Assembly: GCA_018857735.1 (NCBI GenBank)
Contig: JABMCL010001124.1
Location: 470,001-534,000 of the forward strand
Origin: Alviniconcha marisindica
Taxonomy: Eukaryota; Mollusca; Gastropoda; Provannidae
Length of the DNA: 64,000 nt
Reading direction: 5' to 3'
The position numbers were made by a program, and so were the translations under genes. Numbering within the stretch: position 1 is the first letter of the stretch; each line of letters opens with the position of its first letter. Shown in pieces: positions 1 through 52,900 of this stretch. The notes beneath the pieces are model-generated. The model was not told where the DNA came from. It worked only from the letters and a program-made list of their open reading frames with translations, and searched no databases.

Positions 1-157
1 CGTTACAAAGAGTTGGCGACACTTAAAAAAAGCCAACAAAAATCACTAGCATTACTTGACTGAATTAACGACGGTGCTATCTCACCACCACTGGTTGCCG
101 GTAGCTAAGCCCATTTACTGGCACGACTTATTGAATTATCCACACGGTGTTGTTCAG

Positions 158-1059
<902 letters not shown>

Positions 1060-3622: not shown

Positions 3623-6300
3623 TTTATTTCCATATGTAAAATGCACTGACAAGAAACAGACGCATGATCAAAAGAACAGTTCCAAATATAATTTTTTGTA
3701 CACCAACATTTGATGACAATCATAAAATGCATGCACAGCATATTCTTTGAAAATCATGCATGCAAAACTCAACTACTGATGAAACAAACGCATCAGGTTC
3801 AAGATTAAAACAGGCTGTAGTGCAAAGCAGGTTCTTCACCAACAGTCACAGAGCAAACGAGAAAGGGAGAAGAAAAAAAAAAGAGGTTTTCTTTCTAACT
3901 TGTAAGGAGGGGAAAGCAACTCAACAAACCTGTCATATTCTTAACAGAATACTACAATTTCAAACTGAAACTCATGCCACCTTTACAATGATGGCAATTT
4001 TGAAACCCTACTGAATCAATATTCACTGCAAATGTAAACTTTATATACATTTGACCTGTATTTCTTCTCTGGGAAAACTAGGAAAGTCTGCCATGCAATG
4101 AACCACACACACACACTCAAAACTGAATTCATACAAATTTTTCAAACTTTCAACATTATATGGCACCATCCCAGACATGGCTGGAACAGTATCCAAAGTT
4201 CAAAAATACATCATTCGCATTAATTTACCTTTATTCTTGTAATTTATGCCAACATGGAAAAAGTGGAAATAAAATTTTAAAATAATGCAATGGTCAGACG
4301 GGTCCACTGCTACCGCACGACAAATATTTACACCAGCTAGAAGCCATTCACAAGTTTCAGCTCACATCCAGAAACTAAAGACACTGAATTTAAATCAACA
4401 ACTATTTCTGTAAACTAACTCATCACGGGTTACTAAGACAAAAACACCTATTTCTTTCCGACTTGGTGACATATGAACAAATATTTTGGACTACTACTCA
4501 CAGCATTCACTTATTTATGACAGAAAAAGATCGCCATTTGAGCCAAGCTGCATTAAAACTCTCTGTGAAGTAGTCAATTAAAATGCTCTAGTCACTGTCC
4601 ACTTGCAGTCTCTGCCCTCAAGGGAGCAATTTCATTCAGGCATGGGAACCGTCTCACAGAACAAAATGTTAAAAATTGCTGAAAGAATGGAAAAGACATT
4701 GTTTCTCAAAGTTCAAAAGCTGGAGCAGTGGAGGCTGGGGGATTCTCTCCTACCACCAGAAGTAAACCTCAAAATTTTCGCTGGCTGTTGCATTTTCAAT
4801 ATCACACTCCAATGCAATCTTTTTAAACCCAATTTCATTTTCACAGGAAGGATTTTTTAACAGTTTTTGTTGTTGTTTTTAGTGGAACATAAGCTACTTT
4901 GTAGAGGAATTCTACCTATTGGCTGACTAATCCGGTGCCTATTCATTGGCTGTTTCTTTCCAGTTGGACACCCATCCAACACCAAATACCAGCCAGACTG
5001 CAAAACACTGAAAACCAGTCCTATTATACTACACTGGGTCTGACCTTTTCACACTGAACTTTGTTATCTCTATTTGACTACTCCTGTTGCCCAGTAAGAA
5101 CAAAACTAAACATTACTTCATTAAAAAAAAAAAAAAATCAATCAGTGAGTTGAAGGCTGCAGTACACAGTCATACAGACACAAAAGCAACACCATTGTAC
5201 CACATATTGATCTATGTAACACAATCATAACAATCACATTTGTTTGTACAAAAACAATCCAAAGGCTGTGTACATATTCTGAACTGGTGCACATCATCGG
5301 TTTCTGACAGTGCCAATGTCCAAAGCCAATAATTTCACACTATATCAGCTCCTGAACACCCACAAGGACATCATCTTTTGTACAAGTTTAAATAGAGGTC
5401 AGTCTGTCTGTACATAGAGCAAGGGCATGTCACACATCAAAGCCCAATCTACAAGCAGCACACATCCACAGCAAGGAAGATGACCAACTAAACAATGCAG
5501 TCAGTGTGAAACAAATGAACAAACAAAAGACCAGTCTTCCATCACCCCCCCCCCCCAAAAAAGGCAAAGAAAAGACAATTCTGAATCAAACAGAATAACC
5601 CTTACGAAAACACTAAATGTTTTTCACTAGATGCATTAAAAACAAAAACCTCTGAAGAAAGACAACTGAAACAAAAATGCTTATGAGAAAGTAACTGCTT
5701 CTTAACACCCAGTCCACTGCGTAGGTAACATCACGGTGAAATTTGTGATAAGAAAATTTCATCTGATACAAAATGGACAGCATTAAGGAGGCACGAGATA
5801 AATTAGCTTGTAAGACGCCATGCAAACCTTTTCATACCGAGTACAATAAATTTCAAAGTAACTCGTCATCTGGCAAAGAAAGGTGATAGATTTCTACTCG
5901 GTACATCAATCGTAACACTTTAACTGCGCAGAGAATGTGAAAAAGGTTACTAAAAAAAATTAATCAACAAACACGTAATGGTACTGAATCAAACCCAAAA
6001 CATTCCTAACAAGAAGGGAAGACAGATCAGCTATGAGCGAGTGACACAAACTCTAGAAGTACAGCTGCAGAGAGCAAGTGGTTAGCCAGTCAAGTCAGGC
6101 AGGCTGAGGCAATAACAAGGTGAAGTAATGACATCCTTGACAAGTCTCAAACTCCAGAAGCAGCCGCGACGATTCACTCATAAATCCACAGAACAGACAC
6201 ACGGCCACATCCTTGCAGGACGCGAACCCCCATCCACTCGCAGTTGACAGGGCCGAGAACTGGGATTCACTCACTCTCAGTCCTTGGCCCCTGACAGTCA
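3623..6300 (-). other. Probable long 3' UTR of the distal eIF4E isoform, ending at a poly(A) signal near 3623-3628
   Basis: The 2.7 kb downstream (minus strand) of the distal stop codon is AT-rich and lacks a recognisable gene. TTTATT at 3623-3628 reads AATAAA on the minus strand, and another minus-strand AATAAA lies near 4231. A long AU-rich 3' UTR is common for eIF4E, but the true cleavage site cannot be fixed from sequence alone. Confidence 0.45.
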
Positions 6301-6360
6301 TTACAGCTGGTAGCGGTTTTTCACTGTCGAGCCCGTTTTGGAGATGGTGTCAGTGTGGGC
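6301..6360 (-). CDS. EIF4E: eIF4E distal alternative terminal exon (Ser-containing tail)
   Basis: After acceptor GTCTGCAG the exon reads AHTDTISKTGSTVKNRYQL and stops (TAA at 6301-6303). It joins exon 6 (ending GYQ, phase 0) without frameshift. The GST motif matches the vertebrate SGSTTKNRF tail, where the Ser is the Mnk1/2 site. Its 3' UTR would be long. Confidence 0.9.
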   Translation of the reverse strand, partial: AHTDTISKTGSTVKNRYQL

Positions 6361-9300
6361 CTGCAGACACACAAACAGTCAGGCTGGTCAGTTACCTGAA
6401 CCCCATCACACTGGCCACCGATGCAACCGAGCGGGCCCCAGAGACCAAGGCGGAGGCCACTAAGCACAAGCACTGCCTGCACCCATGGGGTGCCTGCACT
6501 CCAACAAAGCAGCGAGTGAATCCGTTTTGGCTGCCTCCAGTGCTGAGGGAGACCAAGTCACAAACAACAAATGCTTCCCATAACCCACAACAGCCTGCAA
6601 AAAGAAGGCATACCATTATTTCAGCCAGCACAGGTGACTTCACTTTTAAGATCACTTTGCTCATGTAAGTACGTGCCTGTGAAAACACAATACAAAAAAA
6701 CAAAAAAGCAGTGAAACCTGCTATGATGGACACCCCTCAAGGCAACAACAAAGTGAAGTTTCTTCACAGGAGGACTGACAATGTCCATAACCTCTGCATC
6801 CAGGAGAAAAACAATGGTTCAAATGTCTTGTCATTTCAGAGGATGTTCAGAACAGGTTCTCTTGTATGGTGCAATCATAAACTGAGTTCGTGAATTTAAC
6901 CCATGATACTGTTCACCATTAAATGGACCTAGCACTTTTCTTCGGTGAAACCCAACGAAGACAAATTTTCTTGACATGAAGTTATGCCTCAACATGATGA
7001 AAATATCCCATTCCACGTTACATTTGCATTACAGCTGTTTTAGAACGTGGTTTCCTTCAGAGAAAGTCATTTAGATGCTGCCATCTGCTTGGTTTGTACA
7101 TAAGAGGGCTTGGTTCCACTATATCACATGCTTCTCAGAAGAATTTGTAGGACTCTCCCCACAGCACATCAGGCTCAGTTGCCCCTGGCAGCAAGGGGAT
7201 GGTTTGACAAGCACTCAAAAACAAACTGGAGCTATCAACCCAAAAAAGACAGGACATATCCATAACCACCAATGGGATGTAGTCCACAGACAGACTGATC
7301 AGGTTTCTTCCAACAGGCTAAATAAAGACAATATTTTCTTGTCTGTTGCACACACACACAAAAACAAAAAGCAAACAAAAACACCAATGGCAAAACAGGA
7401 TTATGAAAACTTAGCTTTCTGATTACTATTTATCAAAGAGAAAAAGATGAGGTGATCTAGTCCATCATGAGCAAGGTTTGTGATGACTGTATGATGGATG
7501 GAATCAACACAGCTTGTAAGGCTTTCTGTACAGCTGCCTTCCCCTTTGGGTAGCTTAGCCTTTTTGGTAGGGTCCACTGCAGAAAATGTTCATCCGTATT
7601 TGTTACCGTTAGTCACCCTGGTGGGGAAGCGGCCATGCATCAATTTGACATAACTGGTTGTTGTAGTTGGTAGCACTGCGCTGCCGCCCTGTCCACTGGA
7701 TAGGTAGTGGTGTGTTTTTATGGCCTTCTTTGGGTCTTTTGTACAGTCCATTAGGGGCACATTCATCTACAGTTGCTGAGGCATTTACCATGTATCAACT
7801 TCAACACAAACTGTCGTTAAAGCTCGTAGCGGTTCTGCACTTGTGCCCTCCCATTGGTCATAGCGTCAGTGTGGGCCTGTGAAAAAACAAACACATATAT
7901 GGTCATTACAGCTGCTCATAACCATTCCCCGCTGCCATGGCTGTCTAAAAACGGCATCAGTACAGGATGGTGAAACACACAACATGCAATCACTCAAACT
8001 GGAAATCAACAGTTCTTTAATGTTGAGGTTGTCCAGAGACAGGACTGCACGCACCACTGTACAACACCCATCACCCTGCTCACACAAATGGGCACAACTG
8101 AAAAACAAACTACATCATTTCTGTCCAACCTGCCTTGAGATGGCATCAGTTCAGGCCTCTGAAAACAGGAGTTCAGTAGAGTCAGTTACTCCAGGTTCAT
8201 ATGCGTTTCTTTAAGCTTACACCAAATGGGACCTATGAAAACATACTTCTTTCAGACGTCCCAAAGAGATGAACAGGTACTGTGCATCCAGCATTGAATG
8301 AGCTAATGGTTTAATCTTACGGTCAGTTTTAACTGCACATTCAATTCATTGTTTTCTCCACCTTCTTGATTGTAAAATGACTACCTGGTATGGACAGTGA
8401 TGTCTATGAAGCCTGATGTAATGCAAGCTTTGTGAAGTGGGCAACCATGACACTGACTATCACAGTGAATGAAAGGAAAACTTCATGCTTTGCATCAGCA
8501 ATGCTAATGCAAGCAACTCCTTTACCCAATTTCTTCCCAAAGGTGAGAGCCAAAGAATCCCAAGAAACCCATGGGCCCTTTACAGATGGCAATCAAATGT
8601 CACATATACTCTGACAAAATGAGCCCAGACCTTCAATCAGGAAACTACACTGCCTGTTGTGACTCCTGTGAGCACAGGGGATAACAAGTTTGATTTAATA
8701 ACCTTGCAATTTGAGCTACCCACTGAAAATGAATTGTGAACAGGAAGATGAAATGCTAACTATGTAATGATGCACCTACTAAGAGTAGAGCCTGCACAGC
8801 CCTGGTCTGAGCAAAATGCAGGTTTATCTTCAATTATGTCATGAAAGGGTGCAAAGGCAACATTAACAAACTAGTAAGTAGTATGCATCTACTTCCTAAT
8901 TACACTGGTGAAATGAAAATAAAGTTACATAACAGGCACAGTGCTGTACAACTACAACTGCTCACAGTAGTAATGACTATGGCTACAACATTAAAAAGAT
9001 GTCTTACCTGGTATCCCATGATGCAACTTTTGGGCATGTTTAATCGTTCTCTCAATGTCCTCCTGGGGGAGAAAAGAAACAGCAGAATGTGAAACAGTCT
9101 GGATGGATGGATGGATAACTGATCTTTTGCCCAATAAACCATTATGGTTACACCAGGGCAAATGTCTGGATGGGTGGGATACGAATGGCAGAATGTGAAA
9201 CTGTGTCAACTGTCATGTTGACAGGAGAGACAAAAACAAAACAAACAGCAGAATAAGAAAGTGTCATGTCTGCATGAGAGGGACAAAAACCAGTTAGGCA

Positions 9301-12300
9301 GATCCAGCAAAAAGCTACAACTCCTGAGAACAGGTAAAACAGAAAATTTATGATCTGCAGGGCAGGAAATTACAGGTTAGCCAAGGCAACACAATCAGAT
9401 CACACAAACAAGTCCAACACAAGAAAGCCCACTAAAAACCTACCCAATTTTTAAGATGGAGTCTTGTCTGTTGAAATCTCTTGTCCAGATCCCCAGCTTA
9501 TCTCCCTTGTTTCGGATGTTGACAACTGCACCACAGATATCATCGCTCTGCTCGTCGAATGCTTCACCAATCAGGCACAGTAACTGTGGATAAACACAAT
9601 AATTTTATGTGGAAAATTCTCTTTGGATCAATTGCAAGTGCTGAGGCTGGAGGTGTGTGTGATACACAACTTACAACACTAACACTCCATCCAATCACTC
9701 CCAAAGGAGACAAATACAAATAAATTCAAATGCCAGATCACTCAAGCAAACTGTTACACATGAAGTATTTTGCTTTAAAACATTTCAGAATTGGGAATAA
9801 TGTGTGACAAGTGCACATGACTGGAAAGTAAAGACTAAAGGAGACTGAAACAGGAACCACACTGTCAGTTGCAGCTTGTCTGGAAAATAAAGTTGTGATG
9901 GATAAATGTACTTATTTACATTTTCAAAACAGTTTGAATGGGTACTTGCCATTCAAGAAGGAACCACACTGCTTTGCTCTAAACAAGGTGTATCACCCAG
10001 AACACTTGTGCATATTGCTAACAGAAACTGTAAGTATGGGCTTTGTTTTATCAGTTTCCTCACCAAACCTCTTGCATTTCAATTCAATGTGAAACATGTG
10101 GAAGAACCAACAGCCCGGTAAATTCCAAGGCATCAGGTGAGCCAGCCAGTTAGCTTTTAGGATCCCCTCTCACAGATCACTGGGTAGTAGGAAACTTCAG
10201 GTGGTTTCCATTTCTAGCAAACCCTATTTGTGCCCACAGGCCATTATATTTATACCTGTCTGCGTGCACATGTATACATGCATGCTTGTGTGTAATGCAG
10301 CATGTCCGCATTTCAATTTTTTTTCACTTTGCATTTCTTCATTTTCAAACAGTCTGTCATTTTTAATCAGGAACTAGTAAAGAACTGACAGCAGGGCAAC
10401 AATAGTCTGTCACAGCTGGCATTTCTTTGGGTAAAAGCAATGTGGATTTCCCTATGTGATTAATTCTGAACTAGGACATGAAAGTATACAAAAATCATCA
10501 AATCAAAGATGGCCAGCACACCCATGTCCCTACATACTAACAGCAGCACACAGAAATACTGGGCTGCAGCTAAATGACCAGGTACTTACGATTTCCTGCC
10601 AGACATTGTCGAGGTCATGATGCCTCTGGTTCTTGTTCATGTTGACCAGCCAGCGGCCCCCCTTCTTGTTCTGCTCATCCTCCCACATAGGCTGGATTCC
10701 ATCCTGACAAACACAACATCACATCACTAGTCAGACCATGGTGACTCAGTTCTTGACAGGACACAGTGAAAGGCAACAGTCAATGCACATCAAGAAGACA
10801 TTTTAGTCACTAATTCGTAACACATTTGACACTGCATGTGACATAGCTGTTTGTGCCACTGCAGCTTTAAAAATATGTTGCATTGTTTATACCAAGTTGT
10901 TTGTATTGGTAAAAAAAACTGCTGATAAGTGATCCTTATCACCAACTTGACAGACTTTTAAGGAGTATTTTAATTCCTTACTAGTATAATACTACAGATT
11001 TTTAAGCATAATTTTCATGCAGAAAGTGAATTTTAGTCACGCAAAGAGTGTATGAAATAGTTAATTATGACTACAATTTGTGTGCTGAATGCATTCCTAG
11101 AGCTTCTAATACTAAACTGTCTGGGTGAAAACAAGAATTAAATGTTTACTCTGCCATCCTGTGAAAGCTGAACTTGAATACACATGACAGTCATAGTACA
11201 TTAGTAGTGTTATGTGGGCATCTTTGACAGACATAAAATAAACTGGACAGAATTAATAGTAATACGAATTCAGCAAGGTAAATCAGAGAACTTGCTAAGT
11301 AAACACATTTGCTAGCTGTTACTGTTAGTGTCCCATTACTAAAACCCTGAAATACTGCCCAGTTTACCTGCATTACCAACAGAGACATTTGCTCAAGTGA
11401 GCAAAAAATAAGTAACAGACAAGGTAACATGCAACTACTGTAATGCTAAAAAATGATGAAACAGGACCAAAAAAAGGTCAATAAGCAGAAATGATCTTCA
11501 GCTATTGGGCGATTCAGCAAAGCTGGTTTGCTAGAGTGAATGCGCTTTGTAATCTTTCGCGCAGGAGGTCGCAGCGCAATTCCAGGCCGATTTCTGAGTA
11601 GGTGTTGCTTCATGCTGTGTATAACAGTGGAAGTTAAACCTAGAATGGCGAAGCAGTACAAATGCCAATACTGTTGCAGTTGCAAAAACTACCATGGAAA
11701 GGGGATGGAGGGTGGAAAAAAAGTGTCTTTGCGTTGTTTTTTGGCTGAAGATTGTGAGTTCATAGAAAAAATGCGTTTTGGGGCATCCTATAGCACGAAC
11801 AACAAGTTATTGCTTATTGGCAGACACATTATGAATACGGGCCTCCAAAAATGCCTTTAAAGCTGGCAGTGTAAAATTCGCAAATTCACTGTCAACGCCT
11901 TCCATTGTAAAGAAAGTACGCACCGGAAGTAAAAGCAGCCAAGGGACTTAAGCGATGCTGGGCAAAAGTCAAGGGAGTTAACAACCCCACCTGAATCACC
12001 CAATAAACACTGACTTTTCTAACATACCAATTTTAAATTCAATATTTCTGGGATTTAGAAAAAGAAAAATTCAGCTGATAGTGATACAAATCTTTTCAAT
12101 GCTGATATATAGTAATATACCTTGAAAACTGAGTAGTCACATCCAGATGGCAATTTGCTGGCTTTCTGTATGTGGTTGTACAGCCTGAAACACAAGCAGC
12201 AATGCACATCACTGGACAGCATGAGACAAACCAAAGTCAAAAATATATCAATTATCATTACAATTGTATACAAATGAACTGTTCCAATTCTGATCTAAAC

Positions 12301-15300
12301 CCTGGGTTTAAAAAGATTACAATCTGCCTTTTTTTCCTCTCTTTTTTTTAACAGCATTTAAAACCATGAGTCACTCTGAGTCTGACACAACAGCCCAAGC
12401 TGAAATCTTCAGGTTGGTCCTTCTATGAAATCCAAGTGTCAAGAATAATATGACTGAAGCAGGTAAAAAAATAAAATATAAAAAATATAAAAAGTTTTCA
12501 CTACTGACCACACACACACACAAACAACCCTGACTGACACAATTTTAAAAGCTGCTATACACTGTATCTAATTTGCATTAGCTGGATACAGGCCAGATCT
12601 AATGTGTGCAAACCAGACAGCTGATACTCACTGGATCTAACTTGTGCAGCTGCTGGACTTAACTGTCCTTGCAGGATCCATCTTGCTCCAAGCCTGACAG
12701 CTGCCCCACCAGGTAGTTGATCCCCCCACCCCCACCCCCCATTGCAAGTCTCTTTCTCTGCTGCATCATGTTGATCAGCCAATGAGAAAATTGTTGCTCA
12801 CACTGTGGTGAGGTCCAGAAAGGTTTTTACTACTGAGTAGGGCAGTTGTGGCCAGGGTTGTTTTCACACACTGGGTTGCTTTTCTTTCAGGAGTCATTTG
12901 ATTCCCACACAAATAAATCCTACAATCAAAACTAACAATATTATAATAGCTGTTGATTTTTATTATAATTAATAATATAAACCATACATTTAACAATTAA
13001 CAATCACTAAAAAAAATCTCAACTTCATCAGTCACAAACTTACTGAACTCGCAGTTTTCAGTTTTGGCTGTCTGACTTGCTATGACCTTAAATAACATCA
13101 GGGTCACTAAAACAGGCTAAACATAACACAGGGTTCATACAGAAAAATCCCTTCAGAATTCACAAACCTTTGTGATAAACTGATAAAGTGATATGGCGCA
13201 GAAAATCAACATGAAGGTACGCAACTCTTCCACACATCTAGTAAAGGAGTGCAACCCTTACTGTAGCTGATGGCCGACACTCTGAACTGATAGGAAGTGC
13301 GTTCTTTTTGATTTTGCACGGCAATTTCTTTTTTGTTTAAATTGCTGTTCAGTCTTGGGAAATGCAGTTTCTGAGTCAGAATCTGACTGATAAGCTGATA
13401 GTTTTTCCCTAGCACTCTGAAGACCACAAAATTCACAAACTTTCACAGACCCCACTCAGTTTTCACACACTTTCAAGGCCTTGAAAAGCGTATCCCATTT
13501 TCCCAAACTTTCAAAGACCTTCAAAGACCATGCGAACCCTGTAACAGTCCCACCAATTAAGCAAATCTGGCATGGTTCACAATGACATTTTTACTATTTT
13601 AGTGTCAAACTAAATCCTAACAAGTCAATAAAAATAATAATAGTTTTTAATACACAATAACACTTACCCCCAGAAGTCTTCAACTGTAGCAAAAGTTGTA
13701 ACAAGACGAAGGTTGTCACACCAGTCACGGGCTTTGTCGTTCTTGAAGAACCACATGGCCCATCTGTTCTGCAGGGGATGTTTGATTAATTCCTCTGGAG
13801 CAATAAGTGCTGTCTCCTGCTCTACCTCCTCCACCTCCTGATTGAATCCAAAAAATATATATATAAAATAATACAGTAATACAAATAATATGCTTTGATA
13901 AAATACATCATTTATCATTATAATTTCATATTCATATGTCTGACACTGTCAGTGACTAGTCACTTAATATACTGTATCAAATCAACAGATTAAAATTCAG
14001 CTATTGTTATAGTAATAAAATTTCATGGTATCAACTGTCAGAATTTATTAGTTCAAATACATAGAAGAACACTGCCCACATCGTTGTTTCCTGGGTTCAA
14101 GCTTTTAACTAAAAAACAATACATTACCCTTTAAACAGCTTTTATAAATTATATAAATGATTTTATGAATTGTATTCTCCAAAGTTTATTCAGCTATAAT
14201 AACACCAGCAGATCAGTCAAAACCCCTATGTTGACAACTATCAAACATGTATAGTTTTTACAGTATATAATGCACTAAGCTGAGACCTGACAAAAAAATG
14301 AAATATTAAATCTAACCCTTCTGCTGGTGTTACACTGTACAGGCAGTACCACTACTAGTACTAGTACTATTATAAGTCCATCAGTCACATGGTTGTGTCA
14401 CTCCCATTTAGTTGTGTGCATGTATTTGTGCATATTAACTGCCTCAGTGTATATCACAGGACTAATATCAGTCATAATTAATGTCCATGGTTGAGTTTGT
14501 AAAACTAAAAGTTGTGACCCTTTGAAGTTACAGTGTGACCCTCTGGGATTTCAGTGACCAAGCTTACAGACTGAGTCTGACCCCCTAAGCCTGAACGTGT
14601 GATCAACACTGAAAAGTGAAAGCGATTTCATTATGTCATATGTCATTATGTGTGAATAGTAATACTAATAGTTATACTACAGTATGGGGAAAATACATAT
14701 AATTACAATGAAAAGAAAAGGCAATACGTTTGACCAACATTTTACTACCCCCTTCATTTTTTTTACAATGTCCTAAGATTTGCATAGCATCTTGGGTGAT
14801 AATGTCTTTAAAAGATTTTTCTGGATGGATCACAATCAGGAACCATTGTACACTGTACTGTGTAATATTACATCACACTCACAGCAGGCGAGCACTTTCA
14901 CTGTGGAGTATTGCACACTTTGGTCACTCATCACTGGCAGTCACATAATTAAGGATTGGATCAACTATCACTGAGGGTCAATCTAAATGTTAACTAGTAG
15001 TAGTGGTACTACTGTACTACTACTAGTGTCTAGTAGTAGTATCGTATACGCAGATCTCAGATTCGTGGTCTCCACGCGAGTACGAACAGAAAGAATTAAA
15101 AACGACATCGTACTCGTAGTCAGTCACCTCAAACAGAACCCATTTTTGCTACTCCGTTCAAAAATATGTTAACTAGGCTAGGGAATCACACATCACTACT
15201 CAGATTCATACTGTACCGCAGATGTTTGCTCTACGTGGAAAAAAGAGTATCTAGAGCTACCGTTCATCTATTTCATCGCCGTGGGTCTAATGTGGCCATA

Positions 15301-15479
15301 CTGACGACAATTAAACGAGAAATTCGAACTTACATCGAAATCAAACCAAGCTCTCGATGGTTTTTGAAGCAAGAAAAAGCAAAACTGTTTCATACAATTA
15401 CAAAAAGAGCATAACATGTAATTGTTTTTGATCAGTATTTTTTTACCTCTTTCGTTGTATCGTCAGCGTTCGAAGCCAT
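6301..15479 (-). CDS. EIF4E: Eukaryotic translation initiation factor 4E (cap-binding protein), distal-last-exon isoform
   Basis: Seven coding exons (minus): 15447-15479, 13668-13837, 12121-12184, 10590-10703, 9444-9583, 9008-9062, 6301-6360; 636 nt, 211 aa, all joined in frame at GT/AG. The product binds the m7G cap of mRNA within eIF4F. Recognisable blocks: MASNADDTTKE; KHPLQNRWAMWFFKND (first cap-stacking Trp of the family and the eIF4G face); VEDFWGLYNHIQ (Trp73-type residue of the eIF4G/4E-BP contact); DGIQPMWEDEQNKKGGRW (Trp102-Glu103 equivalents); LLCLIGEAFDE, CGAVVNIRNKGDKLGIWT (cap phosphate-binding basic residues); RTLRERLNMP; tail AHTDTISKTGSTVKNRYQL. Length is close to the vertebrate 217 aa. 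The tail keeps the Ser equivalent to Ser209. An alternative last exon is listed separately. Confidence 0.95.
7817..7876 (-). CDS. EIF4E: eIF4E proximal alternative terminal exon (tail without the Mnk-type serine)
   Basis: A strong acceptor (TTGTTTTTTCACAG) precedes an exon encoding AHTDAMTNGRAQVQNRYEL and a TAA at 7817-7819. It has the same length (60 nt), phase (0) and flanking residues (AHTD...NRY-L) as the distal exon, so exon 6 can splice to either. The position of the regulatory Ser is Ala, and the conserved Lys of VKNR is Gln. This is a mutually exclusive last exon by structure; its use in transcripts is inferred. No clear AATAAA on the minus strand was noticed shortly downstream. Confidence 0.8.
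   Translation of the reverse strand, partial: AHTDAMTNGRAQVQNRYEL
7906..7966 (-). pseudogene. Decayed copy of the eIF4E terminal exon (copy 2)
   Basis: The minus strand reads TGTACTGATGCCG at its start and ends GAGCAGCTGTAATGACC, matching the start (ACTGACACC) and the end (CCAGCTGTAATGACT) of the distal exon. It has a 2-nt length excess (frameshift) and no AG acceptor at the expected place. It lies about 30 bp upstream (minus sense) of the proximal functional exon. Confidence 0.65.
8100..8161 (-). pseudogene. Decayed copy of the eIF4E terminal exon (copy 1)
   Basis: The acceptor CTGTTTTCAG is followed by AG and then GCCTGAACTGATGCCATCTC, which aligns with GCCCACACTGACACCATCTC of the distal exon and GCCCACACTGACGCTATG of the proximal exon. 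In the family frame the second codon is TGA, and a frameshift follows further on, so it cannot give the normal tail. Confidence 0.65.
11503..12005. mobile_element. Small inverted-repeat DNA transposon with a THAP-like ORF fragment (eIF4E intron 3)
   Basis: TATTGGGCGATTCAG at 11503-11517 is mirrored by CTGAATCACCCAATA at 11991-12005, a 15-bp terminal inverted repeat with one mismatch enclosing about 500 bp. Inside, on the plus strand (ORF 11540-11860), is MAKQYKCQYCCSCKNY followed by KKVSLRCFLAEDCEFIEKMR. The Cys cluster, the basic hydrophobic run and the acid-FI-K pattern recall a THAP zinc-binding domain, the DNA-binding head of P-element-type transposases. The downstream C-x2-H half is not evident and no transposase core is present. 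It is therefore a non-autonomous or eroded element; the THAP assignment is tentative. No clear target-site duplication was found. Confidence 0.5.
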
Positions 15480-20698: not shown

Positions 20699-23600
20699 CT
20701 ATTCATCATCACTGTCATCATCATCATCATCTTCTTCTTCATCATCGTCATCATCATCATCTTCTTCGTCATCTTCACCACTGTCATCATCTTCATCATC
20801 CTGGAAAAAAAGAAGTCGCAATCACAAACAAATGTACTATCAAACAAATGTTTCATCAATACATGTAAAAGCAAAAATAAATTCTTTATTACAGTGCCAC
20901 TACCCATTTATGCATGAAACATACCATAGGCTATCTGAACCGACCTCTCAAAACAGGATTAAAATATCAATTTGCTAATGAAACCCCCAAGTAAAAGCAA
21001 AATAATATCAGTAGGTACCCCTCCAAATTAAACCAAAAAAATCATCATAGTTTTTTGTAACAGATAGATTCCAAGTTATCATTTTTGACAAAAAAATCAT
21101 GTTGGCCCCCCCCCCCCCCCCAATAAATAAATTAAATAAACAAACACCAACAACACAACCCTAAATAAAAGAAAACAGCCCTAAATAGTGATGCACTTTG
21201 TACTTTTCTCTCTTCTAAACAAATACCCTTGCTGCTCCTCAGTTGATGGAATTCTGTCTACTGACAAAAAAAATCTGATGTCTGCCTTTCAAGTTTCAAT
21301 TTGACACAGCATTTTTATTGTCCACGCAGAAGACACTTTAGAATTGTGCTCACTAGGTCAATTCCTAATTTTCATATTTCACACTTACGTCATCTTCGTC
21401 ATCATCATCTTCGTCATCATCATCTTCTTCCTTCTTCTTGACCTCTAACTTGGCTTTTTTCGCAGGTGGTTCACTTTTCTCTGGTTAAAGCAAAAGTACA
21501 AAAGAAGTTGGTCACATGTTACCAAAAGATATCAAGAGTGTTAACCCCACATGCAAACAACCATAAAAAAAAAGAGATATAAAACAATTAAAAGTAAACA
21601 CTGCTTATAATTATTTTTTATGTTAAATCTAGCAGTACCAAAACAGATCCATACCTGTTTAAAACCCATCAACACCCATTTCCCAAAATAAACAACTCTG
21701 CCTCTAACAACTCTGCTCCCCAAAAATGCTCTAAACACCACAATAATCTGCACTGGTACCCACCATCTGATACCATCTTTGAAATCTCACCCTGGTACCC
21801 TATCCTATTGACTGCATATGTGTACGTGTGTGTCTGCACGCATGCTCGAGTGAGATTGTTTTGACTGTGTTTTGGTTCTTTGCTTTGTAATGGGCTATGT
21901 ATTCCAGTTTGGAGAAATAGCACATAAAAGAGATTTTTATTATTATCATCAGTCTGTTTTTCCAAATGAAAGCAAAGAATAAAACAAAAACAACCAATTC
22001 AACCCCCCACCCCCCCCCCCCCCCCCCCCCCCCAACAACCAACAGAATAAATATGTCACTAAACCAACAGCACCCCCCCCCCCCCCCCAAACAAAAGAAA
22101 AGTTCTTACTTGCAGGTTCTTGGTTCTTCTGGGACAGCTTCTGGTCTTTCTTATGTTGCTCTGCACTGCGTTTCTTTGCATACAGCACCACCAGTCGGTG
22201 CCCATGAACGCTGGCCCCTTGACACTTGTCGTGTGCAGCTTTGCACTGCTCTGGAGTGGCGAAAGCAGCAAAGGCATATCTGTTGGGGAGGAAAAACAGA
22301 AACAAATTGCTGAAACTGACAGCACGGTTCCAAAACAACATAGTAACAACTAAACTGGTATCATGACTTTGTCTTTATGAGTGCACTGGTTTAACAAACA
22401 AAAACCACAAATCTACCGTAACAAATGAGCCTGTTACTTTATGAAGCTGTAGTTTGGAGGCACGGTGCTGGAAAGTGTGGCTTGGAGGATGGGGTAACAC
22501 AGCATCTGTTTGTATGATGGTCTGTACAAGTGTGAGGGAAGGGGGCCCACACGCTACCTTCTGACTCAGCACAGTGACACTTCTCTTTTAAGACCACCCT
22601 AAGAAACAAGTATGTCAAATGCATGGTTTGAATGGTTGGTGCTGAAACTCCCATGACGTCTGAACATTTTACATTCTACATGTCACTCAGTCTCCTCTCT
22701 CAAAGGCATGCCCTTCCCTGCCCCTCTACATCTTGAGCAACCTGTCTGCGCATGCAAGATTTGCAACTCAATGGGAGCTCCTTGGAAGTCCAGGTTTAAT
22801 TCCACGCTGCTTCCAGCCTTGTGCCCAGCTTACCCGACAGGGGTGTTGTCTTTCTTCCTCATGGGCAGCGTCACCTCCTGTGCCTTGGGGAACAGCTTGT
22901 GCAGGTCTGCCTCCTTCGCAGTGCTGCCAAACCCAGTGATGTACAGGCGCAGTGGGTCAGGGTCCGCTGGGAAAAAGCAGACAAAGGGTCAAGTTCACAT
23001 CCTGAATATATATATAAAAAATTAACATTAAGATGTAACTCTGGTGGAGTTTACGTACCTCGTATTTATACACATGCCAGATGAGAGTTACTGTAGGCGA
23101 CTCAGGTCTTTGTTGTTGTATGTGTAATGTATTTTGAGTGCTAATTAACTCCCTTGCGTGTTTTTATGTTCTAAATGTTCTCAAGGCAAAGTGGATTTAA
23201 ACCATAACTGACTAAATAGCACTCCACAGATGTCACAGGTATATAACATGGAAATGGACAGCAGAGACCTGAATTGCATATGATAACTACCACCGGAGGT
23301 GATTAGAGGATGTACTTTTGGTAGAGTTTACATACCTTGTATTTACTCTCATGCAAGGTGATAGCTACCCTAGGTGATTAGCGTCTCTCTTGTGTCCATT
23401 GTCATGCATGTGACATCCATTGAATGCTATTAATTCCATTTGTTTGTTGATTCAACACAAGCACTCTACAGGCCTCATTCTGTTTCTGCTAATTACCAGC
23501 CTCTCTTGTGACATCTGTCAGTTTGGTGACTCTCCTTTTTAGGACCATGTACATGCATTTTACATTTCGCACTTGAATGCAAACCTTCAGTGAAACTAAT

Positions 23601-26600: not shown

Positions 26601-29600
26601 CAGTCCCACCCAAGCTGAGCCTGACAAAGACATCAATGAGTTATACAGCATTTTATCCTCGGCATGACCAGAAGCACACAAAGCGACACTCAATACCTGT
26701 CAGTACTGCTTGCTGAAAGCTGCCAAACCCCTCACCTATTTCTTTCTTCTGCGGCCGGTAGCTGCTCTTCTCTCCCACATAGTCCACCACTATCTCATTG
26801 TCGTTGATCTTTGCTCCCTGGAGCACTTTAAAATTCTTGTCCGCCAGAGCTTCTGATGCAAACTCCACGTACGCAAAACTAGAACAGACACCCAAAGAGG
26901 CTTAGATAGACAACAATCTGACAATATATAACCATGACAATAAACACAGTATTCTGAATCTCTGACACATGTGTGATGCTCAAACTTGTCAAAGCACTAC
27001 ACATGAAACATTACAAAAGCACATAACCTAATTAACTGTATTACATAGCTCTCTCTCGATTCTTTCACACACACACGCACACAGAAACACGTAACGCATT
27101 CTCCACCCATCACCTCTCTACTCATTGATCGAGAACTCTGAAACTTAGCAGCACACATCAATAATTGCTTACATATGAAGTTGCAGAACGCACACATATA
27201 TTATACAAACATTATATTATGCACACATGAACACATGTGTTTATGCACACCTACATCCATATTCTGGTACCACTAAATCTCACATACACACTATATAAAA
27301 TGGATCAATAACAACACACACATGTACAGGCTGGATTCTAACTGGCATCAAATGGCAAGCTGATACACCAGATGGAACTTGTACCACCCAGACAGCTGAC
27401 ACATGCCAGATCTAACCTGCTAGTTAGTTAGTAACTAGAGTTTAACTTCCTGTCAACCACAGAAGCTCAGGACAATCAAACTCGTAAGCAAATGCACACT
27501 TCAAAACTCTTCTCATATATATAAACCCTTTTTCAAGTCCAACCACAAAACCAATCCCCACGCATAAGTAAGTAAGCTGGTGTTTTATGCTCAGTCAACC
27601 AGTGTGGTTACATCAGGGTGATCCAATCCCCACACAAACATGAAAAAAAACATACATGATACACAAACATCCAACACAAATTTCTAAAGAGTTAGTCCCT
27701 TTAATATTACCCTGCTAAAAGATCACATAAGGCAAAGACATGCTGGTATCGTCAACCTTTGCCTCTAATTTATTGATACCAGATTAAGAAAAATATAAGG
27801 AATGAATGGACAAAAACAGAAACAAACAAACCAAAAATGTTGTATACCACTGCCAAATACCATTACCAGTGCCATATATATGGCAGCAAGCTGCACATAC
27901 CACCAGGCATGGTACTGTCAAAAAATGACTGAGGTGATGGAGGACTTCTTCACCAAGTGGGCCTCTGCTACATGAAGAGCAGTGTTAATGATTAACACTT
28001 GCAACCAATCGGTTTCTGCTACATGAAGAGCAGTGTTAATGATTAACACTTGCAACCAATCGGTTTCTGCTACATGAAGAGCAGTGTTAATGATTAACAC
28101 TTGCAACCAATCGGCTTCTGCTATATGAAGAGCAGCATTAATGATTAACACTTGCAACCAATCTGCCAGCCATCTGGCCAACCTTCCATCCCATCAACCA
28201 CCTCCTCCTCACAACCAGGACGTCGGCAATGTACCTCAGTTTTTTCTTCTGGCGATTCTTGGCCCGCACTGTGATGCGTAGCCGCACCTCTCTGATGTCC
28301 TTGGACAGAGCCTTGATGTCCTTGACGCTGACTGTGGGTGGCAGATTCTTCACGAACAGCGTGCACCTGTCACGTTCCTCTGAAACACCCAACGCATGCA
28401 TGAACACAAATGATTTCTGCCACTGTGGTCTCTTTTGAATTTTCTGTTTAATCATGGACAGTCCTGATAAACACCAGCTGCAATGGTTTAAATGGATCCT
28501 GCCTGTAAATTTGCGACTTGAAATCAAGGCAGATTTTAAAAGAAAATGAGAGGTGTGTGGGTCTGACTCTTTCAGGCCATTATTTGCAAGGGGAGGAGGG
28601 TAAACAAGGGAGGGAAATGAAAAACTGACGTCTTGATTTTTCATGTGTGTGTGTGTGTGCCCACATGCATGCCAAGCTGCCATGTAAAACTGAATATTCT
28701 TAAAGTTTTAGTAATTTTACAGCTGCATGTATAAATTACAGTCCCTGTATTGATCAAACTCACCCTGGCGCTGTGCATCTCCACTGGCATCTGAAAAACA
28801 AGAAAAAATAAAAATCAACTTAACTTCTGAACTACTTTTGAAGAGGGACTGTAGCAAACTGGCACAGGAAAGAGTTCATTTTTACAGCACCCTTGCCAGC
28901 TGGAGCTAGACTGACAAATGCATAAACCAAGCATACACAAAACAACTAGTGAGTCACCAAAACTCACATAAAAGCCACCATCAAAGTCCATAGAAAACCA
29001 CCACCCAGGCTACCAGAAAGAAAACTATCAGTACCAACCAAGTCCACAGGAAAGAGAAAAATTGCCTAAAGTTCACACACATGAAGATCACATAATCTCA
29101 TACTAGTCATAGTAAAAAAAAAAAACTGTTTACTCAAACGCAGAAAAACTGTAACACAAGTCCACACAAAAAACTATCATCCAGACTACAGAAAGAAAGA
29201 AAAAAAACTGTTACCCAAGGTCACTAAAAAAAAAAAACTTACGTCAAGCTAACTGTCATGGAAAAACAAATCAGAAGCAACTCTAACAAACCTGAAGCAC
29301 AACAAAAAAAACAGACAGAGAGACACACACACACAGAAAGGGCAGAAGGCATGGGTAGGTTACTGGCTCATTAAATGAGAATGCTGATAATCTGAGTGAA
29401 CAGTACAAAATGTGACACTCACCGGGTGGAGCTAACCTGCCGGCCTGTTCAGCTTTCTTATCCTGTTTCCCCTTTTGCTGAGGCTGCTTCTGAGCTTTGT
29501 CATCAGCCTGTTGTTTCTGCTTTCCAGCTGCCGCTGGCTGTTTCTGCTGCTTCTGAGCTTCCTTCTGCTGCTTCTGCTTTTCAGCTGCTGTTGGCTGTTT

Positions 29601-49900: not shown

Positions 49901-52900
49901 AATTTGTTTTATTGTGTTGGTAAGCCAGAGAGCAAAAACAGAAATAAACAAAAGGGGAGATTCCAAGATTTTGCTTTGCTGGAAGTGATGTTCTAAAAGG
50001 TTGAATTTGTTTGCTTGTTTTTCAGAAAAGAAAGCTGCCAAGAGACCCGCACCTGCTGGTGAGTGATTTTCTTTTAATTTAACCAGTTTGATCACTAATG
50101 TTTATCTGATGTAAGATGGAAGCGACTGCTGTTTTTTTAATTTTTGGCTTGTATAAATGTCTGATCAATTCCAAAGCTTGGCCAACTGCAGCTTGTCACA
50201 AGCAGGGCTACAAAACTTCATGTAGCTTGCTTTTTGTCATAGCAGTGCTTTTGTCTTTTCTTAGTTGATAGGAAGGTCATTGAGTGTGCTCCTTTTGTCA
50301 TGTTACATTTGTCCTTTTCAGATGATGAGGAGGAGGAGGAGGAAGAATCTGAGGAAGAGGAGGAAGAATCTGAGGAAGAGGAGGTGGCAGGCAAGCGCAA
50401 GAAGGGAGGAGATGCAGGAGCAGTAGCTAAGAAACAGAAAGTGGACACCAGTGCCACTGAAGGTATGACTGAGCATGTGGAGATGGTTTTCAGAAGAATG
50501 TACTTCTTGAATGCATTTTGTATGAAAAGAAAAATGCTTCTATCAGTTCAGTGATGTCAGTTTTTTTTAGTTTAGTTTTTTACCTTGCCTGCTCCCCCGA
50601 AGGGAGGCCGGGGATGTCTGATGTCGCCCTCCTGTTTGGAATCTTAGGGCTGTCATTTGATTCCCCTTTCCTATATCCTCTCTTGTTTTTTCTGCCTAGA
50701 CCGCTAATGGTCCATTCTCCTGACTTTTTTCCAGAAAATTCTCAAATATTTTTTATTAGGGGTTAGGCTTTTTTTATATATATGGCTCTTGTTGAGCAGC
50801 TAGGAGATGATAGTTGGTAGGTGGTATGTGCAGCTTGCTGCCATATGGCACTGTCATTATGCATTTATATAATATTTTTTAATTTTATATTGTGTCTGTC
50901 CATTCCTTTTTATATTTTTCTTTAACCTGGTGTTGATAAATTAGACGGAATGGTCGATGATACCAGCATGTCCTAGCCTTATGTGCTCTTTTAACATGGG
51001 TAATATTGAAGGGACTAACTCTTCGAAAATTTGTGTCTGATGTTTGTGTATGTGCGTTTCATATTTGCGAAGTGATTGGTTTTGTAGATTGACTTGACAG
51101 ATGGTTGATAGATATGTGAGAAGAGTTTAGAAATGTTTATTTGCTTATGACCTGAGTTTGACTGTCCTGAGGTGACCCTGTGTGGTTGACAGGACATTAA
51201 AATCCAATTACTACTACTACTACCACCTTGCCTGCTTGTGGGCCTCTTCACAGGCTTTGTTAGGCTTGGATTGTGTTCTTTGTTAAATGTACCCCTGTCA
51301 TGTGTTCTGCTTAACGTGCACATGGTGGTTTTGTTACAGAAGTGGTCACACTGTTTGTTGGTCGCCTGAACAATGACACAACTGCTGAGGCTGTCAAGAA
51401 GTTATTCAAGAAGAATGGCATCAAGTGCAAAGATGTTCGCAAAATGGACAGAAAGAGGTAAGCAACTTAGCATGGTCACACTAAAAGGATTTGTGACCTG
51501 CACAGGTAAACGCTGCTCTTTCAGCTGCTAGTTTTATTCGACAGTTCAACTTCCTTTCCTGTGAGGGAGCCAGGCTGACTACGTTGGTGAGAAATACGTT
51601 CCAGTAAACCTTTTTAAATTCATGGATGCGGGAACACTTGTTGGACCTTATGTTAGTGGGCAGAGCATCCTCTCTTATGGCTACGCATCAGAGGTTGGTT
51701 TTGTCTTATTTACTTATTTGTGATTGTGGCATAATTGAAAAGTACAGGCATTGCCGTGACAGTCACTTGTAGTGGGATGGACTTGGTGGTTGTCCCTCGC
51801 TTCTTTGTAGCTTGTGTCTGCCCATGTGGCTTGTGACATATTTCATGTTCCATACATCAGCATTGATGCAATCCCTCCTCAGCAATAATTGAGATACAGG
51901 GTTGTGTCACAATGAAGGCATGTCAGGCTGCCTGACCCGTTAAGCTGCTTTTTCCTTTTCTGCAACATGTTTTTGGGTGATCTTGAACAACCTGTTTCTT
52001 CACTTTATAAACTCTGCATTATTTTCTGTTCAAGGTTTGGCTATGTTGACCTTGCCAATGCTGAAGACCTGGACAAAGCTATTGCTCTGAGCGGCCAGGA
52101 ACTGGACGGGAGTGAAATCACAGTGGAGCGTGCTAAGCCCAAAAACCAGTCCTTCAGTGAGCCGAAAGGGCAAACCCAGCAGTATGCAGGCAGACAAGAG
52201 CGCGACACCTCTGGTAAGACTGTTTCAGAATGTATGTTGGTATCCTTTTACACAAAAGTGAACCTCAGGTCTCTGGGTGGTGGTTTCTGTTCTGTAATTA
52301 TCTCAGAGGATAAAAAGGCAGATTTTCATGAATAGGATGAAAAATCGGAACATATTCCTTTGATGTTAATATACACGAAGATTGTGATCTGAGCACGCTT
52401 CTGGCAGTGATGAATGGAACTTGCCCTCTCTGACCTCACATTGTGCTGAGACAAGTTTTCCTTTCTGTGTACTCGAAAGTTCTGAGCCAGTTTCAGTGCA
52501 AGGTTCTTAGGGTCCTTACAGGTGTTCACAAGTACTTACAAATTGAATTTACCAAGGAAGGCCTTATAAGTCCTTATATTTGCATCATGGTCCTTACAAG
52601 TCTAGCTAATACTAAAAACGCACATGGGTAGTTGTAAAGGCCTCTCATTTTTCCAAGTCAGCAACACTGGATCAACACACATTTACTGCACTTTGAAATC
52701 GTTCAGACATAGGTTGAGAGTCATGAAATAACCAGACCCCACCTGGTTCTCTCCCTGCTTGGCTCTCTTGTGCTTGTATTTCATGCAGAGGTGTATCTAT
52801 TGAATTTTGTGTTTTTGTTTCAGCTGATGACCGCACATTGTTTGTAAAGGGTCTTGCTGATTCAGTTGATGAAGGAAAACTCCAGGCTTTCTTCTCTGAA

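What the first reader, a model, noticed from the sequence alone, without database searches (positions are those of the whole stretch)
6301..7876. eIF4E has two alternative last exons that swap the Mnk-site serine for alanine
Exon 6 ends in phase 0 (GYQ) and can join either the 60-nt distal exon (AHTDTISKTGSTVKNRYQL) or the 60-nt proximal exon (AHTDAMTNGRAQVQNRYEL). Both have good acceptors, equal length and in-frame stops. Aligned to the vertebrate tail (SGSTTKNRFVV), the distal exon keeps the serine equivalent to Ser209 and the following Lys; the proximal exon has Ala and Gln there. Established: Mnk1/2 phosphorylate Ser209 of vertebrate eIF4E. Inference: splicing or polyadenylation choice could make a phospho-insensitive eIF4E and also select a different 3' UTR.
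Basis: partly seen in the sequence, partly recalled or inferred. Interest (0 to 1): 0.85.

Follow-up and report, generated by a model that had tools for sequence, protein, structure and literature searches.

The report
Snail eIF4E with swappable phosphorylation tail
A snail gene for eIF4E, a protein that starts protein synthesis, carries two interchangeable last coding exons, one with the regulatory phosphorylation site and one without it, so alternative splicing could make an eIF4E that ignores its usual signal; a periwinkle record shows the same siteless kind of tail.

Summary
Confirmed as sequence. The only class I eIF4E gene found in this genome (probably a caenogastropod) has six shared coding exons and two homologous 60-nt terminal exons (7817-7876, 6301-6360, minus strand). 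Both join exon 6 in phase 0 and end in TAA. Their match far exceeds chance: BLOSUM score 50, next best 29 among about 128,000 positions; 43 of 60 bases identical. The distal tail has Ser and Thr at human Ser209/Thr210; the proximal has Ala and Gln. A Littorina saxatilis record, "eIF4E-1A-like isoform X2", has a tail of the same class (AHVDAIAGGRAPLKNRFEM, shared Gly-Arg-Ala). Among the best 120 of 710 relatives, 118 have a readable tail: 116 Ser, 1 Thr, and only Littorina Ala at that column. So the proximal exon is probably conserved and real. Best explanation: a splice switch making an eIF4E that cannot be phosphorylated there, a natural counterpart of S209A/T210A. Splicing in this species, effect on Mnk signalling and the proximal transcript's end are untested; no AATAAA/ATTAAA precedes the distal exon, and a donor-like site 28 nt after the proximal stop allows a cassette alternative. 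Novelty: new variant of a known kind.

The parts
15447..15479 (-). eIF4E coding exon 1 (start codon to donor)
   Evidence: ATG..GAG|GTAAAA
13668..13837 (-). eIF4E coding exon 2
   Evidence: splice sites AG..GT
12121..12184 (-). eIF4E coding exon 3
10590..10703 (-). eIF4E coding exon 4
9444..9583 (-). eIF4E coding exon 5 (holds RNKGDK, equivalent of human R157/K159/K162)
   Evidence: residues named in PMC12410004 (passages)
9008..9062 (-). eIF4E coding exon 6, ends GYQ in phase 0, strong donor CAG|GTAAGA
7817..7876 (-). proximal terminal exon, AHTDAMTNGRAQVQNRYEL*, Ala at the Ser209 position and Gln at the Thr210 position
   Evidence: Littorina isoform X2 tail
6301..6360 (-). distal terminal exon, AHTDTISKTGSTVKNRYQL*, canonical Ser/Thr tail
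   Evidence: Nucella tail differs by one residue
7783..7788 (-). donor-like site ATG|GTAAAT, exon end would be 7789, 28 nt after the proximal stop; would make the proximal exon a cassette
   Evidence: score 5.99 against 5.0-11.1 for the gene's own six donors; not shown to be used
3623..3628 (-). AATAAA, one of three candidate poly(A) signals of the distal transcript (others start at 4235 and 3443)
   Evidence: signal match only
8121..8156 (-). possible decayed third copy of the terminal exon behind an AG, with an in-frame TGA at codon 2 (A*TDAISR..)
   Evidence: suggestive only, controls mixed

Best explanation
The gene carries a tandemly duplicated terminal coding exon. Joining exon 6 to the distal copy makes ordinary eIF4E with the phosphorylatable Ser209/Thr210-type loop. 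Joining it to the proximal copy makes a full-length eIF4E whose cap-binding core is unchanged and whose C-terminal anchor is nearly so, but whose regulatory loop has no phosphate acceptor at either position (Ala, Gln), so that it should not be phosphorylated there by Mnk. Splice choice would thus set what share of the eIF4E pool answers to MAP kinase/Mnk signalling. Shown: the exons, frame, splice-site matches, residues, and a tail of the proximal class in a Littorina record. Inferred: use of both exons in this species, loss of Mnk response, physiological role.
For: Exon homology far above chance. Equal length, phase and stop; good acceptors. An independent Littorina saxatilis protein named isoform X2 has the same tail class, with Gly-Arg-Ala at human positions 207-209 and no Ser or Thr anywhere in the tail. 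Of the best 120 of 710 relatives, 118 have a readable tail; the Ser209 column is 116 Ser, 1 Thr and 1 Ala (Littorina X2), and Gly, Arg or Ala at the three positions 207, 208 and 209 respectively occur in no other row. Among these 118 only Littorina X2 lacks Ser/Thr at both 209 and 210, as does the window's proximal tail. Nonsynonymous differences between the exons sit in codons 5-14 (11.5 of 12.5) rather than the ends (1.0). In the AlphaFold model of Littorina X2 that stretch includes the low-confidence residues 198-200, while a final strand 204-207 is kept. Only one class I eIF4E gene was found in the genome.
Against: No transcript evidence for this species. The Littorina record is a database protein; its isoform X1 and its DNA were not seen, because the protein collection is clustered at 90% identity. 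dN/dS between the two exons is not above 1 (dN 0.36, dS 0.45, 19 codons), and synonymous changes too are fewer in the ends (1.0 of 5.8 sites) than in the middle (3.5 of 7.5), so the conserved ends may partly reflect DNA-level causes such as splicing signals or gene conversion. Two Thr remain elsewhere in the window's proximal tail. The effect of Ser209 phosphorylation on translation is itself disputed (PMC7215568 and PMC3418764, passages). Presence of Mnk in this genome was not tested.
Confidence: 0.66

Rival explanations
1. Cassette instead of alternative last exon: the proximal exon ends at a donor 28 nt after its stop (7789) and is spliced onto the distal exon, which becomes 3' UTR. The protein outcome is the same, but both mRNAs share one poly(A) site; by the recalled 50-55 nt rule the junction is too near the stop to trigger nonsense-mediated decay.
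For: Donor ATG|GTAAAT scores 5.99, within the range of the gene's own donors (5.0-11.1). No AATAAA/ATTAAA between the proximal stop and the distal acceptor, three AATAAA after the distal exon.
Against: 166 minus-strand GT sites in 64 kb score 6 or more, so one such site nearby is weak evidence; absence of both signals is seen in 49% of 1000 simulated sequences of this composition; weaker signal variants (GATAAA, CATAAA, AAGAAA) are present.
Confidence: 0.4
2. The proximal exon is a dead or barely used duplicate: an old exon copy that still looks intact but is not spliced at a meaningful level.
For: It matches its Littorina counterpart less well (10 of 19) than the distal tail matches Nucella's (18 of 19), though these are different species pairs; and a possible decayed third copy lies next to it.
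Against: Frame, stop position, acceptor and anchoring residues are all kept, and the unusual Gly-Arg-Ala is shared with a named Littorina isoform.
Confidence: 0.2
3. The two tails are both used, but the point is not Mnk insensitivity: the loop swap changes another property (binding partners, lysine modification, granule localisation or protein turnover), with loss of the phosphosite as a by-product.
For: Two lysines of the loop (human 206 and 212) are also lost in the window's proximal tail, and one of them in Littorina; sumoylation linked to Ser209 phosphorylation is described in PMC12410004 (passages). That Lys206 and Lys212 are SUMO sites is recalled only; the passages found in PMC4558139 do not say so.
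Against: The residues that the two species' proximal tails share, and that no other of 118 readable tails has, centre on the phosphosite itself (Gly-Arg-Ala), and Lys212 is kept in Littorina.
Confidence: 0.3
4. Assembly artefact or misplaced paralogous sequence.
For: The window lies on one contig of an assembly of 2806 contigs; no reads were seen.
Against: The exons differ at 17 of 60 bases and their flanks are dissimilar (25 of 60 and 20 of 60 bases), so this is not a collapsed or repeated copy; a tail of the proximal class occurs in another species; no other class I gene was found to supply it.
Confidence: 0.02

Closest known systems
eIF4E-1A-like isoform X2 of Littorina saxatilis (database record P0001)
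   Same: Same tail class, Ala at the Ser209 position, Gly-Arg-Ala, tail of the same length; 143 of 154 core residues identical to the window's protein
   Different: Tail is 10 of 19 identical; Littorina keeps Lys at human 212 and has no Ser or Thr in the tail at all; its gene structure was not seen
Human/vertebrate eIF4E1 with the Ser209 Mnk site, and the engineered S209A and S209A/T210A mutants (PMC12410004, passages)
   Same: Distal tail is the Ser209/Thr210 type; the proximal tail has the same two acceptor positions changed as the engineered double mutant
   Different: Natural, encoded by a second exon, with other loop residues changed too. The human eIF4E1 variant described in PMC5006505 (passages) differs at the N-terminus
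Human eIF4E2 isoforms A and C with different 3'-distal exons (PMC5006505, passages)
   Same: Alternative C-terminal exons in an eIF4E-family gene
   Different: Class II protein, one variant shorter; not described there as a homologous exon pair that swaps the Mnk site
MNK1a/b and MNK2a/b splice isoforms (PMC7215568, passages)
   Same: Alternative splicing of the C-terminus tunes the Mnk-eIF4E axis
   Different: There the kinase is spliced, here the substrate
U2AF1 tandem duplicated exons (PMC6821156, start of abstract in a search listing)
   Same: Tandemly duplicated exons used alternatively in a basic gene-expression factor
   Different: Another gene; no phosphosite swap is mentioned in what I saw

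Membership tests
eIF4E class I (eIF4E1) | IF4E domain over the curated cut-off | tested here: met
   PF01652 207.6 bits, cut-off 28.7 (proximal isoform; the domain match covers residues 32-190, which both isoforms share)
eIF4E class I (eIF4E1) | closest to eIF4E1, not 4E2 or 4E3, and cap-binding tryptophans present | tested here: met
   best solved match eIF4E 291 bits against 133 for type 2 and 84 for type 3; W at the W56 and W102 positions in the printed alignment
eIF4E class I (eIF4E1) | phosphorylatable Ser at human 209 (stated for metazoan eIF4Es in PMC1260017, passage) | tested here: inconclusive
   met by the distal isoform, not met by the proximal one
Tandem duplicated alternative exon pair | homologous neighbouring exons, same phase, each with its own acceptor | tested here: met
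Tandem duplicated alternative exon pair | transcripts using one or the other exon | not testable with these tools
   no RNA data; a Littorina record named isoform X2 carries the proximal tail class, its X1 was not seen
Alternative last exon with its own poly(A) site | poly(A) signal after the proximal stop and before the distal exon | tested here: inconclusive
   no AATAAA/ATTAAA, weaker variants only; 49% of 1000 simulated sequences also have none
Phospho-insensitive eIF4E | no tail phosphorylation by Mnk | not testable with these tools
   residues at 209 and 210 are Ala and Gln; needs a kinase assay

The most novel reading that the evidence does not exclude
A lineage of caenogastropod snails has kept, at least since the split from Littorina, a built-in splice switch in its only class I eIF4E gene. 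It produces a natural equivalent of the S209A/T210A double mutant, so that part of the cap-binding pool is permanently uncoupled from Mnk signalling, perhaps by tissue or by neuronal state.
Probability: 0.42. Interest if true: 0.8.

Novelty: new variant of a known kind. Interest (0 to 1): 0.62.

Why it matters
Why eIF4E is phosphorylated at Ser209 is an old and still disputed question (passages of PMC12410004, PMC7215568 and PMC3418764), often attacked with engineered mutants. A gene that makes both a phosphorylatable and a non-phosphorylatable eIF4E from the same core would be a natural experiment: where and when each form is made would tell what the phosphate is for. It would also put control of the Mnk-eIF4E axis in the splicing of the substrate rather than of the kinase.

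Tried and rejected
(1) Chance ORF in an intron: rejected, score 50 against 29 for the next best position. (2) Positive selection on the loop: Nei-Gojobori gives dN 0.36 and dS 0.45 over 19 codons, Fisher p 1.0, so not shown; synonymous changes also cluster in the middle codons (3.5 of 7.5 sites, against 1.0 of 5.8 in the ends). (3) Third exon copy at 8121-8156: only suggestive. It is the only place in the window, both strands, besides the two exons themselves, that follows AG and has 16 or more of 24 matches to the start of either exon. Its gapped score of 27 against the distal exon is reached in 0.6% of 1000 simulations, but also by 2 of 96 control pieces of the window, and the stretch between the two exons reaches 27 against the proximal exon; against the proximal exon the exon 6 side scores 17, no better than chance (83% of simulations). 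Ungapped over 60 nt it matches 22 of 60. (4) More proximal-type tails: region searches with the window's and with Littorina's tail each returned only P0001 and P0002. The collection is clustered at 90% identity, so isoforms that differ only in the tail are hidden, and absence elsewhere means little. (6) Literature: eight searches listed no paper whose title or abstract start describes such an eIF4E exon pair; the library holds open-licence papers only and most listings were capped. Aplysia work on eIF4E phosphorylation is recalled, not found. (7) Mnk in this genome: not tested. (9) On checking, one row first counted as Ser at the Ser209 column (P0110, a model that runs into intron) was dropped; the count is now 116 of 118, not 117 of 120.

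Full report
What is there. The minus strand of the window carries a complete eIF4E gene: coding exons at 15447-15479, 13668-13837, 12121-12184, 10590-10703, 9444-9583 and 9008-9062, with GT donors and AG acceptors, followed by two possible terminal coding exons, proximal 7817-7876 and distal 6301-6360. Exon 6 ends with GYQ in phase 0. Either terminal exon completes a 211-residue protein. The spliced proximal form matches Pfam IF4E with 207.6 bits against a cut-off of 28.7, and its best solved relatives are eIF4E chains (up to 291 bits), well above type 2 (133) and type 3 (84). It is therefore class I eIF4E. In the window's own genome (817.6 Mb, 2806 contigs) the searches, which scored only 10 and 11 candidates, found one class I gene, a type 2-like gene on contig C839 and a type 3-like exon on C2530; the last two labels rest on sequence resemblance as I recall those types.

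Is the exon pair more than chance? A scan of all 19-codon positions of the window on both strands with the distal tail gives 97 for itself, 50 for the proximal tail and 29 for the next best. The two exons agree at 43 of 60 bases, while 60 bases upstream and downstream agree at only 25 and 20, so the unit of similarity is the exon.

What differs. Aligned to human eIF4E, the proximal tail has Ala at Ser209, Gln at Thr210, Gly at Ser207 and Gln at Lys212; the distal tail has Ser, Thr, Thr and Lys there. The Thr210 change matters, because a recent review says that mutation to S209A results in phosphorylation of neighbouring Thr210 and that a double S209A/T210A mutant was made for that reason (PMC12410004, passages). 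The proximal exon changes both positions. Nonsynonymous differences between the exons lie mostly in codons 5-14 (11.5 of 12.5) and hardly in the ends (1.0); synonymous ones lean the same way (3.5 of 7.5 sites in the middle, 1.0 of 5.8 in the ends). Over all 19 codons dN is 0.36 and dS 0.45, so there is no sign of positive selection, and part of the likeness of the ends may have a DNA-level cause.

Conservation. Searching with the last 47 residues of the proximal form returned two proteins. One, from Littorina saxatilis, is named eukaryotic translation initiation factor 4E-1A-like isoform X2 and ends AHVDAIAGGRAPLKNRFEM; the other, from Nucella lapillus, ends with the distal type of tail, one residue different from the window's. 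The Littorina tail is closer to the window's proximal tail (10 of 19, score 60) than to its distal tail (7 of 19, score 41). A full-length search with the distal form found 710 proteins and listed the best 120; I aligned all 120. Two rows have no readable tail: one truncated (P0038) and one running into intron (P0110). Of the other 118, 116 have Ser at the Ser209 column, one (Protopterus) Thr and one (Littorina X2) Ala; Gly and Arg at the two columns before it, as in the proximal tail, occur only in Littorina X2. Three consecutive residues in common that no other row has make independent origin unlikely: the proximal exon probably predates the split of the two lineages. The compared part of the window's protein is 143 of 154 identical to Littorina, 139 of 154 to Nucella, 117 of 136 to Batillaria and 126 of 154 to Pomacea, so the species is most likely a caenogastropod; its name is not known.

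Limits of that evidence. The protein collection keeps one representative per 90% identity cluster. The Littorina cluster has three members, and I could see only the representative; that isoform X1 has the canonical tail is inferred from the naming. For the same reason the absence of the proximal tail in other snails is little informative.

Structure. An AlphaFold model of Littorina X2, made on an alignment of 41 sequences (41 of the 120 retrieved, chosen by me for spread), has mean pLDDT 87.7, a helix at 191-195, an uncertain stretch whose lowest part is residues 198-200 (Gly-Arg-Ala), and a final strand at 204-207. The conserved ends of the tail are thus the structured ones, and the exchanged part is the loop that carries the phosphosite. 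No model of the window's own protein was made.

How the proximal transcript ends. Between the proximal stop and the distal exon (1,456 nt) there is no AATAAA or ATTAAA; the distal side has AATAAA starting at 4235, 3628 and 3443. Of 1000 simulated sequences of similar dinucleotide make-up 49% lack both signals, so this does not decide. A donor-like ATG|GTAAAT lies 28 nt after the proximal stop with a score of 5.99; the gene's own donors score 5.0 to 11.1, but 166 minus-strand GT sites of the window score 6 or more. The proximal exon may thus be an alternative last exon or a cassette spliced to the distal exon; the protein is the same.

A possible third copy. At 8121-8156, behind an AG, lies a stretch reading A-stop-TDAISR. 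Besides the two exons it is the only AG-preceded place in the window, both strands, with at least 16 of 24 matches to the start of either exon. Its gapped score of 27 against the distal exon is also reached by 2 of 96 control pieces, and by the stretch between the exons against the proximal exon. I treat it as suggestive.

Mechanism and rivals. The best-supported reading is a splice switch that makes an eIF4E without the Mnk acceptor residues. The steps shown are the exons, their frame and sites, the residues, and the presence of the tail class in a record of a second species. The steps inferred are use in this species, insensitivity to Mnk and physiological purpose. The main rivals are a cassette arrangement (same protein), a little-used exon, and a loop swap selected for another property such as lysine modification.

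Known or new. Passages read in PMC5006505 describe a human eIF4E1 variant that differs at the N-terminus and eIF4E2 variants with different C-terminal exons. Passages of PMC7215568 describe splice isoforms of the kinases MNK1 and MNK2. A passage of PMC1260017 states that bona fide eIF4Es of Metazoa possess the phosphorylatable serine. Eight literature searches listed no description of an eIF4E exon pair that swaps Ser209; the library holds open-licence papers only, and most listings were capped. Alternative tandem exons are a known kind of device, and a Littorina record of the tail already exists in a public database, so I rate this a new variant of a known kind.

Noticed in passing
window 8121-8156, minus strand: Possible decayed third copy of the terminal exon with an in-frame TGA at its second codon, behind an AG.
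   Followed up: partly
window 6397-6594, minus strand: The strongest acceptor-like site of the exon 6 to distal region (13.5 at 6594) and a good donor-like site (CAGGTAACT, 8.6 at 6396) frame a 198-nt stretch only 36 nt before the distal exon; unexplained, could be a 3' UTR exon or chance.
   Followed up: no
window 135-350, plus strand: Part of a SPARC gene (PF10591, 41 bits, cut-off 22); eIF4E lies beyond it in convergent orientation.
   Followed up: no
window 21949-22374 (minus), 51916-52335 and 53322-53594 (plus): Partial RRM matches just under the Pfam cut-off (17-19 bits against 20.7) in 3 of 4 open frames tested outside eIF4E and SPARC (28138-28707 gave none), with long acidic and lysine-rich open frames nearby on both strands; they look like two nucleolin-like genes (resemblance recalled).
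   Followed up: no
L016 (G000:C839:858001-868000) and L017 (G000:C2530:121001-131000): The genome's other eIF4E-family genes: a type 2-like gene with no Ser209-type motif in the tail stretch seen, and a type 3-like exon (types by recalled resemblance).
   Followed up: partly
P0110, Pinctada imbricata: A bivalve eIF4E model runs past GFQ into what looks like intron, suggesting that the exon boundary before the tail is also present in bivalves.
   Followed up: no
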